Positions 9,993 to 25,636 of a stretch of 31,687 bases of DNA are shown one piece after another; the first letter of the stretch is position 1; each line of letters opens with the position of its first letter. This DNA is from a virus. Both the position numbers and the translations under genes were made by a program. Below the pieces are notes generated by a model. The model made no database searches. It was given only the letters and a program-made list of their open reading frames with translations, and was not told the DNA's origin. The stretch lies in IMG/VR virus record IMGVR_UViG_3300008417_000021, positions 1-31,687 of that record. One strand, given 5' to 3'.

Positions 9993-10246
9993 TTGCCATT
10001 TCCTATCTCTACAACTCTAAACGCTTCAACTAATTTCTGCCTATCTAATGACCCAAAGATATTCTCAATCATCTTGTATTCCATAGGTTCCTGATTCTTC
10101 TTAAACGTATCCAAATACTGCCACATTTCCAAGAAAGCCCTAGCAACCTTAGGACGTATATCGTCAATTAGGCTATCCTTACGCTTCTGTTTACTCTCCA
10201 TAACTTTCTTCATAGCCACTCTAACGTCCTCGCCTCTCTGAGCCAT
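9989..10246 (-). CDS. small helical phage protein, 85 aa
   Basis: The first of two nearby ATGs would be at 10252, but GGAGGTTGATA is spaced for the ATG at 10246. The product is wholly helical and rich in Lys, Arg, Met and Glu (VAMKKVMESKQKRKDSLIDD, then WQYLDTFKKNQ). It lies between the head-tail adaptor and the nozzle-like gene and overlaps the latter by four bases. It may be a connector accessory or chaperone; no family is recognised. Confidence 0.55.
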   Translation of the reverse strand: MAQRGEDVRVAMKKVMESKQKRKDSLIDDIRPKVARAFLEMWQYLDTFKKNQEPMEYKMIENIFGSLDRQKLVEAFRVVEIGNGK

Positions 10247-10248
10247 TA

Positions 10249-12396: not shown

Positions 12397-12410
12397 AATA
12401 CTTCTCCTAT

Positions 12411-12620
12411 TTAGTTAATGTTTCTATTCCGAGGTTTAGCGAGTACTTTGAAGCCAGCCTGCTCAACACCCATTCCACTTATCATAATAAAAGGTATAAT
12501 ATCACAGTCGAAGAATACACAAGCTTCCTGTATCTTCTTCAGACACTTCTGTTCACGTGTCTTATCGTCAGCTTCAATTGCCTTAGCCCCAGCTAGATTA
12601 ATTCTACTTTGATTGCTCAA
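12411..12620 (-). CDS. small unknown protein, 69 aa
   Basis: The only plausible start is a TTG at 12620, eight bases behind GGAG; the frame ends 14 bases before the capsid start. An N-terminal polar helix (AGAKAIEADDKTREQKCLKKIQEA) leads to a hydrophobic strand (CVFFDCDIIPFIMISG) and a basic tail. No family is recognised. Its place in the tightly packed head cassette supports a real gene. Confidence 0.5.
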   Translation of the reverse strand: MSNQSRINLAGAKAIEADDKTREQKCLKKIQEACVFFDCDIIPFIMISGMGVEQAGFKVLAKPRNRNIN

Positions 12621-12631
12621 AACTCTGTCTC

Positions 12632-12802
12632 CTATTTCTTCTTCGCTTTAGATATTCCCATTGATTTAGGAACAGGATCAAATGGAGGTCTTCCATCTAC
12701 AAAGTTACCTTTGCTAGTAACCTCCATAATCACGCCTTCCTTCGCTTCAACCTTAATTACATTTCCATCATTAAGGCAGAAGTCAAATTTCTTTGCAGCC
12801 AT
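12632..12802 (-). CDS. small head-cassette protein, 56 aa
   Basis: The frame starts at the ATG at 12802, four bases after a textbook AGGAGG. It reads MAAKKFDFCLNDGNVIKVEA and ends GRPPFDPVPKSMGISKAKKK. Short beta strands precede a Pro-rich loop and a basic tail. Comparable small proteins with a DGRPPFDP-like motif sit beside capsid genes in phages, but I cannot name a function. It fills the gap that would otherwise separate the genes on each side. Confidence 0.6.
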   Translation of the reverse strand: MAAKKFDFCLNDGNVIKVEAKEGVIMEVTSKGNFVDGRPPFDPVPKSMGISKAKKK

Positions 12803-12810
12803 AATTCCTC

Positions 12811-13068
12811 CTATTCATTCAACTTATCCATGACATCATTGCATCTAGTCATAACATCGTCAACCTTATCAATAATATCATCGAAATATTTTCTAATGTC
12901 TCCATCCATAAAGTGAGTAGCTATCCTACCAGTTCCATCACAATTTGGACAGTCGCCTGTACTCTCTGGTTGAGTTAGCTCTCCCTGATAGTTCAAATAA
13001 GCATTCGGAAACTGTCCATCTCCCCAACACTTACCACAGGTTCTGTATAATATAATAGGATCAGCCAT
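12811..13068 (-). CDS. DnaJ-type zinc-finger protein, 85 aa
   Basis: The ATG follows GAGGTGAATC. Two CxxCxGxG units are visible: CGKCWGDGQ (residues about 11-19) and CPNCDGTGR (about 40-48), the same repeat that binds zinc in the DnaJ cysteine-rich domain. The C-terminal 30 residues form an amphipathic, acidic helix (YFDDIIDKVDDVMTRCNDVM). With two units it should bind one zinc ion. It may be a capsid assembly helper, given its location between a beta-helix protein and the capsid gene; this role is inference. Confidence 0.65.
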   Translation of the reverse strand: MADPIILYRTCGKCWGDGQFPNAYLNYQGELTQPESTGDCPNCDGTGRIATHFMDGDIRKYFDDIIDKVDDVMTRCNDVMDKLNE

Positions 13069-13081
13069 GATTCACCTCTTA

Positions 13082-15682: not shown

Positions 15683-15894
15683 TATTCATTCCTCGCTATA
15701 CTTGCATTAGCCCAGAATACAGCTTCCTCAAGCTTCGTGAAGGCTAAAGATAGTTCACGAGTTTGTGTAGGACAGTTAGCAGCCAAGAAGTGAGCAAAAT
15801 CTTTAGCCATATCTCTTATATCTTCATACCTTTCTGCTTGTCCATCCTTTAGTGCATGATAAGTGAAATTATTTTCAATCCGATCTGTTGTCAT
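15682..15894 (-). CDS. acb2: Acb2/Tad1-type cyclic-nucleotide sponge (anti-CBASS/anti-Thoeris)
   Basis: The 70-residue protein starts at an ATG behind AGGAGGAAATA. It matches the small Acb2/Tad1 hairpin family: FTYHALKDGQAERYEDIRD at residues 10-28, an NCP turn at 40-42, and the very conserved C-terminus SLAFTKLEEAVFWANASIAR (49-68). Family members assemble into hexamers that sequester cyclic di- and trinucleotides made by CBASS, and in some cases Thoeris signals, so host effectors are not switched on. Tyr12 in FTYH aligns with the base-stacking tyrosine of characterised Acb2 proteins, as far as I recall. It sits in the head operon, between a membrane micro-protein and a portal-downstream gene, and would be made late unless it has its own promoter. 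Function is assigned by family resemblance. Confidence 0.85.
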   Translation of the reverse strand: MTTDRIENNFTYHALKDGQAERYEDIRDMAKDFAHFLAANCPTQTRELSLAFTKLEEAVFWANASIARNE

Positions 15895-15903
15895 TATTTC
15901 CTC

Positions 15904-16002
15904 CTATTCAGGCCAGACTTTCCACATGACAATTACAGCAGCGCCAACCACTGCAAGCACGTGAACAATCACTAGCCATGTTATCCAAAGTACTTTCTTC
16001 AT
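15904..16002 (-). CDS. single-pass membrane micro-protein, 32 aa
   Basis: A short frame begins at the ATG at 16002, behind AAAGGAGGAGAGACG, one of the strongest ribosome binding sites in the window. It reads MKKVLWITWLVIVHVLAVVG then AAVIVMWKVWPE: one transmembrane helix flanked by Lys and Trp. It ends 10 bases before the Acb2-like start, so both are probably co-expressed. No family is recognised. It could be a membrane partner of neighbouring proteins or a small holin-like peptide, both speculative. Confidence 0.6.
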   Translation of the reverse strand: MKKVLWITWLVIVHVLAVVGAAVIVMWKVWPE

Positions 16003-16024
16003 TTTCGTCTCTCCTCCTTTATCC

Positions 16025-16051
16025 AGAACCCATCAGAATCTGAATGGTACT
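16025..16051. repeat. 27-bp palindrome, copy 4
   Basis: AGAACCCATCAGA, A, TCTGAATGGTACT. It begins right behind the portal stop codon (16051-16053) and ends just before the ribosome binding site of the 32-residue gene. Position relative to the stop is the same as for copy 2. Confidence 0.85.
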
Positions 16052-19600: not shown

Positions 19601-19841
19601 GACTAGACCTTAAAGGATTGTCCACCATCAGCTTTATTGGCTGTAGTGGCTGATTAAAGTTTAGAATATTAATCCAGAGTTTCCCTGTAAACAACATCTT
19701 AAATCGTTCCTTGATACTTATTTGCCAACAGTGAAAAACTCTCCCGCCCTGCTCATCATCCTGATATACTGGCAAAGGTATATACGGAGGTTGATTCTCT
19801 GCAAAGACAGTATTACACTCTTTAAATTGTATTGGTATCAT
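19590..19841 (-). CDS. small conserved phage protein, 83 aa
   Basis: The ATG follows TTGGAGGACTAA. The core VFHCWQISIKERFKMLFTGK followed by LWINILNFNQPLQPIKLMV is the hallmark of a common phage protein with a CWxxSxxERxxxLxTGKxW motif, found near terminase genes. Its function is unknown. It sits directly after the large terminase gene. Confidence 0.65.
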   Translation of the reverse strand: MIPIQFKECNTVFAENQPPYIPLPVYQDDEQGGRVFHCWQISIKERFKMLFTGKLWINILNFNQPLQPIKLMVDNPLRSSHEQ

Positions 19842-19854
19842 TTAGTCCTCCAAT

Positions 19855-24425: not shown

Positions 24426-25028
24426 TTAGCCTCCCTTTAGTTTAGTTAAGATTAACTCAAGAATCTCCCGGACTCTGTCCAGGAGAGATTTCTTCTTCCC
24501 TTTCTTAAATAACTCCACTCCAGCATAATGTCTGCCAGCTATGTTGGCAGTAACCTTAAAGACGTCATAGCTCTTATTCACAACTTTCCTAAACGCGCTC
24601 TCAAATTTCAATGCAGGAATCTCAACAACCTGCATCTCACGTTTCAACGTAAGACCTTTCTTGCGCTTCTTCATCCTGATTGTGACAGCGTCACGTATGA
24701 TTTCAGGATCAAACTCTATATGAATATGTGTAGTGTGCTGCACAATGTCAAACTTCAAAGGCCTGAATATCTCATTCAAGCCACTAAAGAAAGCCTTCTT
24801 TCCAGTGTTGCTAAGAGTTCGAATCTTCCAATCTCTGACATCTATCGCCTCACCAGTGAAATGCTTGCTTCCAACCATGTGAGGAGCCTTAAGCTCACTC
24901 CCACTTGTGATGATAGCATCTTCGCCAGTATACTTCATCATGAGCTTATCGAGCAAGATTCGTCTTGCAAGAATACTCTTGCAGAGATTCAGTTCAACTG
25001 GCGGGATACTGTCAAGTTTGATTCTCAT
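24426..25028 (-). CDS. endolysin, M15-type zinc peptidase, 200 aa
   Basis: The catalytic signature of D-Ala-D-Ala carboxypeptidase/VanY-type enzymes is complete: SKHFTGEAID (residues 54-63; ligands H56 and D63) and HIHIEFD (101-107; ligand H103). These enzymes cut the peptide stems of peptidoglycan. Residues 1-50 form the N-terminal helical part; residues about 112-200 are a strongly basic extension (IRMKKRKKGLTLKREM, FKKGKKKSLLDRVREILELI) that may bind the wall or membrane. There is no signal peptide, so it needs the nearby holin-like protein for release. The gene is preceded by the structured RNA element at 25046-25138. Confidence 0.8.
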   Translation of the reverse strand: MRIKLDSIPPVELNLCKSILARRILLDKLMMKYTGEDAIITSGSELKAPHMVGSKHFTGEAIDVRDWKIRTLSNTGKKAFFSGLNEIFRPLKFDIVQHTTHIHIEFDPEIIRDAVTIRMKKRKKGLTLKREMQVVEIPALKFESAFRKVVNKSYDVFKVTANIAGRHYAGVELFKKGKKKSLLDRVREILELILTKLKGG

Positions 25029-25045
25029 CTTTCATTCCCTATTTA

Positions 25046-25138
25046 ATATCAGCGGCCAGGTCGTCAACCTGTTACCTTGCACCCACAGAAGCACAAGGTC
25101 GTTGGAGACTAACCCAACTTTAGGAACCGCTGACATCT
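25046..25138 (-). ncRNA. predicted cloverleaf-like structured RNA in lysis cassette
   Basis: The only long gap inside the lysis genes folds into a four-helix junction on the transcribed (minus) strand. The closing helix pairs 25128-25138 with 25046-25056: seven Watson-Crick pairs (TCAGCGG/CCGCTGA), then G-U, U-A, A-U and G-U. Three hairpins lie inside: GUUGGG/UCCAAC, CCUUGUGCUU/GGGUGCAAGG with loop CUGU, and CAGGUU/GACCUG. Every helix is extended by G-U pairs that would be A-C mismatches on the other strand, which points to an RNA in this orientation. Loop lengths and arm order do not fit a tRNA. It may control endolysin translation, be processed to a small RNA, or serve packaging; no known family was recognised. 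Confidence 0.55.
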
Positions 25139-25499
25139 ATTTCTTCCTCAACTCTTCAAGAATTAAATTACCTTGTTTCTTCAGATCCCCAACCTGTGTA
25201 TTGATAGCATCAACCTTTCCTGACAACTCAACGACAGCTTGAATCATTCCATCATTTAAGCCTTCGCCATACATTACCTTGTTTATCTTCTCACTTGATT
25301 TTTCCAGCGAACCTACCCTAATCTCCACTGCGTTAAGCTCAGCCTCATGAGTCGCCTTTTCCATCCCTGTCAATTCTGCCTCGTCTATTCTAGTTGCAGC
25401 TCTATCTACCACTGTAAAATAGAATATAATAACAGCTATAAAAGTTGTAACAGATAATCCACTCAACCACTTCAGCTTCTTTCCTTTTGTGTCTGGCAT
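25137..25499 (-). CDS. membrane-anchored coiled-coil protein, spanin-like, 120 aa
   Basis: A GTG at 25511 is in frame, but the GGAG at about 25505 is spaced for the ATG at 25499. A basic N-terminus (PDTKGKKLKWL) leads to one transmembrane helix (SVTTFIAVIIFYFTVV, about 15-31). The rest is charged, heptad-like helix (IDEAELTGMEKATHEAEL, VDAINTQVGDLKKQGNLILE). This is the topology of an inner-membrane spanin (Rz-like), and it lies next to the endolysin. A holin accessory or tail-fibre assembly role are alternatives. Confidence 0.55.
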   Translation of the reverse strand: MPDTKGKKLKWLSGLSVTTFIAVIIFYFTVVDRAATRIDEAELTGMEKATHEAELNAVEIRVGSLEKSSEKINKVMYGEGLNDGMIQAVVELSGKVDAINTQVGDLKKQGNLILEELRKK

Positions 25500-25510
25500 T
25501 TCAGTCTCCA

Positions 25511-25636
25511 CTATTTCATACTGAGTAACTGCTTCGTTTTCTTTCCGATAGCATTTATACTACCATTAACTACATGAAATCCATACAGCAAGACTACCAC
25601 TAACAGCGCAAGAAATACAATAACTATCTCAGCCAT
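25511..25636 (-). CDS. single-pass membrane micro-protein, 41 aa
   Basis: The frame is open upstream to 25693, but the ATG at 25636 opens directly into a transmembrane helix (MAEIVIVFLALLVVVLLYGF) followed by a short basic tail ending LSMK. The upstream site (AAGGGG) is moderate. It sits just after another membrane micro-protein and before the spanin-like gene, so it is likely part of the lysis set, for instance an antiholin or pinholin. No family is recognised. Confidence 0.5.
   Translation of the reverse strand: MAEIVIVFLALLVVVLLYGFHVVNGSINAIGKKTKQLLSMK

What the first reader, a model, noticed from the sequence alone, without database searches (positions are those of the whole stretch)
25046..25138. 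Candidate new structured RNA in the lysis cassette
A four-helix junction is supported by a 7-bp closing helix and three hairpins, and all four are lengthened by G-U pairs only on the transcribed strand. It is the only sizable gap among the lysis genes and lies just before the endolysin. It does not fit a tRNA. Possible roles are timing of endolysin translation, a processed small RNA, or a packaging RNA.
Basis: partly seen in the sequence, partly recalled or inferred. Interest (0 to 1): 0.75.

Follow-up and report, generated by a model that had tools for sequence, protein, structure and literature searches.

The report
Orphan cloverleaf RNA before phage endolysin
The gap between two lysis genes of this uncultured phage can fold, on the transcribed strand, into an unusually stable four-armed RNA that may influence how the cell-wall-cutting enzyme is translated; it was found in no other sequence we could search, so its function is unproven.

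Summary
The fold is real at the level of prediction. The minus (coding) strand at 25137-25045 folds into a four-way junction of 35 pairs (9 G-U) with no bulge or internal loop: -42.0 kcal/mol for the stated 93 nt, the most stable 93-nt stretch of the window on either strand. Five of 50,000 dinucleotide shuffles reach -42; the plus strand gives only -27.4. The fold fills the 108-nt gap between the stop codon of an upstream small membrane-protein gene and the ribosome-binding site of an M15-peptidase-like endolysin gene. A 34-codon ORF also fits the gap, but its codon usage is that of a wrong frame, so a small protein is unlikely. No Rfam family, tRNA, or relative in phage, plasmid, IMG/VR or genome collections was found. 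Endolysin homologues and syntenic relatives lack the element, so covariation could not be tested. The nested fold leaves the endolysin Shine-Dalgarno (SD) free; the only long single strand of the junction (UUCCUA) can pair with it, but only weakly above chance. Best reading: a lineage-specific, cis-acting mRNA structure that tunes endolysin translation, perhaps by a pseudoknot. A processed RNA, or a structure without function, remain open.

The parts
25045..25137 (-). Whole structured element (four-way junction)
25126..25137 (-). P1 5' strand, pairs with 25056-25045 (12 bp, closing helix)
25045..25056 (-). P1 3' strand
25119..25125 (-). J1/2 single strand UCCUAAA; with U25126 it can pair with the endolysin SD (UUCCUA/UAGGGA)
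25101..25118 (-). P2 hairpin, 6 bp, 6-nt loop
25074..25099 (-). P3 hairpin, 11 bp, 4-nt loop
25057..25071 (-). P4 hairpin, 6 bp, 3-nt loop
25036..25041 (-). SD region UAGGGA of the endolysin gene, unpaired in the nested fold
24426..25028 (-). Downstream gene, M15-peptidase-like (probable endolysin)
25137..25511 (-). Upstream gene, small membrane/coiled-coil protein with weak holin match; ends at the first base of the element
25032..25136 (-). 34-codon ORF filling the gap, probably not a gene

Best explanation
The gap is a cis-acting structured segment of the polycistronic lysis mRNA. Shown by prediction: on the minus strand it forms one dominant, rigid four-way junction that starts at the stop codon of the upstream gene and ends a few nucleotides before the endolysin SD. 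Inferred: by filling the spacer it separates the endolysin ribosome-binding site from ribosomes finishing the upstream gene and so sets the level or timing of endolysin translation. Possibly the junction strand UUCCUA also pairs with UAGGGA of the SD as a pseudoknot that opens when the junction is opened. The pseudoknot step is the least supported.
For: Fold far better than shuffles, on the coding strand only, and the most stable 93-mer in the window. All 35 pairs are without bulges, and near-binary pairing probabilities persist in a 211-nt context. The fold occupies the gap from stop codon to RBS. The gap does not look coding. Among 180 intergenic gaps of 87 records no other gave an equally clean four-way junction; the one of lower energy, from L085, has irregular helices. 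J1/2 to SD complementarity of -4.7 to -6.0 kcal/mol. Precedent: a leader structure on T4 lysozyme gene e mRNA lowers early translation about 100-fold, and the T4 gene 32 leader carries a pseudoknot upstream of its RBS (PMC3014915).
Against: No homologue, hence no covariation. Six endolysin homologues at 31-35% identity have no such element upstream. In the nested fold the SD is open, so simple occlusion is not predicted. Complementarity of comparable strength within 100 nt upstream of an RBS is common in this genome. Genome-wide significance of the energy alone is modest.
Confidence: 0.42

Rival explanations
1. A stable fold without function: an intergenic spacer that happens to fold well, kept or recently acquired together with the endolysin gene.
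For: Not present in any relative. Whole-window shuffles reach z -5.0, similar to this element's -4.81. 5 of 50,000 shuffles of the same composition reach its energy, with thousands of overlapping windows examined.
Against: Most stable 93-mer of the window, 35 pairs without interruption, placed exactly in the gap and on the transcribed strand. Relatives in hand are too distant to expect sequence conservation of a spacer.
Confidence: 0.28
2. A processed stable RNA: the junction is cut out of the lysis mRNA (for example by RNase III-type cleavage) and acts in trans, or the cut itself matures the endolysin mRNA.
For: Compact, self-closed fold with long helices and free flanks.
Against: No promoter-like site directly upstream on the minus strand and no terminator-like site at its end. 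No single helix approaches two helical turns (12 and 11 bp at most). No transcript data.
Confidence: 0.15
3. A small protein gene of 34 codons (MSAVPKVGLVSNDLVLLWVQGNRLTTWPLILNRE) or a leader peptide, the fold being secondary or coupled to its translation.
For: ATG overlaps the upstream stop, GAGG lies 9 nt upstream, and the stop falls just before the endolysin ATG.
Against: Codon score at wrong-frame level: below 99.2% of gene windows and below every held-out lysis gene, including one of 41 aa. No PHROG or tblastn match, and a degenerate peptide pattern in IMG/VR found only an unrelated frame.
Confidence: 0.09
4. Packaging RNA, tRNA-like molecule or member of a known RNA family.
For: Cloverleaf-like outline only.
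Against: No Rfam match and no tRNA; the phage encodes a TerL-type packaging motor, for which no packaging RNA is known to me.
Confidence: 0.03

Closest known systems
T4 gene e (lysozyme) mRNA leader structure
   Same: RNA structure immediately upstream of a phage endolysin start, where premature translation would be harmful (PMC3014915)
   Different: T4 e uses a stem-loop that pairs with the RBS itself in long early transcripts, with late promoters just upstream of the RBS; here a four-way junction leaves the SD unpaired and no promoter-like site lies in it
T4/T2/RB69 gene 32 leader pseudoknot
   Same: Compact structured RNA upstream of an RBS; a pseudoknot is conceivable here (PMC3014915)
   Different: The gene 32 pseudoknot is a protein-binding autoregulatory site with relatives; here the pseudoknot is only a -4.7 to -6.0 kcal/mol complementarity and no relative or binding protein is known
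Rfam RF03084 DUF2815 RNA
   Same: Chance-level alignment over the region just before the endolysin ATG (12.9 bits, E 8.6)
   Different: Far below the gathering score of 41.2 bits and of different architecture; not a member

Membership tests
Any Rfam 15 family | Score at or above the curated gathering threshold | tested here: not met
   none; best 12.9 bits against a threshold of 41.2
tRNA | Recognisable acceptor, D, anticodon and T arms | tested here: not met
   ARAGORN 0 genes; helices 12, 6, 11, 6 bp with loops of 6, 4, 3 nt
T4 gene e-type RBS-sequestering leader | SD and/or AUG inside a helix of the predicted fold | tested here: inconclusive
   SD 92-98% unpaired in the 211-nt context; start codon partly in a small downstream hairpin; in a 181-nt context the mean RBS accessibility is average for this genome (0.45)
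Conserved structured RNA (general) | Compensatory base changes across homologues | not testable with these tools
   no homologue in phages, plasmids, IMG/VR pattern scan, about 60 further related virus records, or genome contigs pattern
Conserved structured RNA (general) | Folding energy well below dinucleotide shuffles, on one strand | tested here: met
Small protein-coding gene | Codon usage like the genome's genes | tested here: not met
Small protein-coding gene | Start, SD and stop fitting the gap | tested here: met

The most novel reading that the evidence does not exclude
A new class of phage mRNA element: a rigid four-way-junction RNA whose junction strand reaches out as a pseudoknot to the Shine-Dalgarno of the endolysin gene, gating lysis-enzyme translation.
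Probability: 0.1. Interest if true: 0.6.

Novelty: new variant of a known kind. Interest (0 to 1): 0.3.

Why it matters
If the element works as proposed, lysis timing would be set here by a complex mRNA structure rather than by a simple hairpin or by holin and antiholin alone, in a group of uncultured SU10-like podoviruses. As it stands it is a well-defined single-genome candidate that one close relative could confirm or refute.

Tried and rejected
Rfam at gathering and permissive thresholds. ARAGORN. DNA and peptide searches of phages and plasmids. Relatives through the endolysin, the upstream gene, TerL, MCP and the adjacent 23460 protein; the nearest are 54% (TerL, L006), about 50% (MCP) and 58% (23460 protein, L009), none with the element. 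A covariance model of the single sequence (R1) over 68 sources and 63 whole records, own record included, found only itself; such a model is insensitive to diverged members. A P1+J1/2 pattern in IMG/VR gave four hits (L170-L173), antisense to a structural gene (checked for L170) and without the arms; a similar pattern in genome contigs gave none, MCP in genome contigs none. A degenerate LWVQGNRL pattern gave one unrelated short frame. In one search the strand labelled J1/2 25125-25119 was really 25126-25120; one search corrects this.

Full report
OBSERVATION. The genes around the finding run on the minus strand. The minus-strand sequence 25138-25046 folds at -42.0 kcal/mol (z -5.1, none of 200 shuffles), against -27.4 for the plus strand. 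With one further G-U pair the 96-nt segment has 35 pairs, 9 of them G-U, no bulge and no internal loop. In a 211-nt context the same pairs have near-binary probabilities, so there is one dominant nested fold and no sign of a two-state switch.

SIGNIFICANCE. Of 50,000 dinucleotide shuffles 5 reach -42. Over all 93-nt windows of both strands this is the most stable (next -37.4) and second in composition-corrected z, behind a perfect inverted repeat at 30854-30886. Three whole-window shuffles gave best energies of -33.8 to -37.0 and best z of -4.2 to -5.0. The energy alone is therefore noteworthy but not decisive genome-wide; that the fold fills a gap from stop codon to RBS is the additional argument.

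IS THE GAP A GENE? A 34-codon ORF (25136-25032) overlaps the upstream stop, has GAGG 9 nt upstream and ends just before the endolysin ATG. Its codon score is that of wrong frames: below 99.2% of 33-codon windows of the window's genes and, with lysis-region genes held out, below all eight of those genes, including one of 41 aa. The ORF is probably incidental, although a short ORF constrained by structure could be atypical.

SURROUNDINGS. The window is a SU10-like podovirus-type genome (capsid and portal; TerL), part of a 36,196-base virus record. The nearest named phage is Desulfofustis phage LS06-2018-MD01 (MCP 40%, TerL 38%), whose lysis region carries another endolysin and no such fold. The downstream gene resembles M15-type peptidases by conserved H, D and HxH residues shared with homologues and by weak M15 matches among those homologues. 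The window protein itself matches no Pfam family, so 'endolysin' is an inference.

RELATIVES. Loci sharing TerL (54% at best), MCP (about 50%) or the adjacent 23460 protein (58%) were fetched. Some keep the gene order but carry a lysozyme-type endolysin instead (L007, L013). Six homologues of the window's endolysin have no comparable element upstream; one of them (L086) has only 46 nt of upstream sequence. A covariance model of the element finds only itself. Absence is limited evidence, because a single-sequence model is insensitive and no close relative is held. Among 180 intergenic gaps of 87 records only this one gave a clean four-way junction.

MECHANISM. Shown by prediction: fold, strand, place, non-coding character. 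Inferred: action in cis on endolysin translation. The nested fold leaves the SD open in the 211-nt context. The junction strand UUCCUA can pair with UAGGGA of the SD (-6.0 kcal/mol with U25126, -4.7 without; 1.7% and 3.0% of k-mers do as well), but other genes also have similar complementarity somewhere in the 100 nt upstream, so the pseudoknot is only a suggestion. Precedents are the T4 gene e leader and the T4 gene 32 pseudoknot (PMC3014915); membership in either kind is not shown.

VERDICT. A real, unusually clean predicted RNA fold, an orphan in all searched data. Moderate support for a lineage-specific cis-acting mRNA structure; no support for a packaging RNA or tRNA; a small gene is unlikely; a functionless fold is not excluded.

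Noticed in passing
window 30854-30886: Perfect 13-bp inverted repeat with 7-nt loop (ATGCTAGGTGAGG...CCTCACCTAGCAT) between two plus-strand ORFs (ending 30843, starting 30919), without a T-run; the strongest composition-adjusted fold of the window (z -5.69). Possible operator or processing hairpin.
   Followed up: partly
window 24426-25028; L007:2073-2576; L013:327-746; L005:35119-35511: The endolysin slot holds different enzyme types in relatives with similar gene order (M15-like here, lysozyme-like in L007 and L013, another type in L005), suggesting modular exchange of the lysis gene.
   Followed up: partly
window 24426-24695: The M15-like protein has a basic C-terminal extension of about 90 aa that is absent from the homologues aligned.
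   Followed up: no
window 12397-13081, 15683-16050, 9993-10248, 19601-19854: Large gaps without ORFs of 100 aa or more in the otherwise compact late block; not examined for small genes or RNAs.
   Followed up: no
L021:766-1338: An intergenic stretch of a related phage contains a long near-perfect hairpin (about -41 kcal/mol for 97 nt).
   Followed up: no
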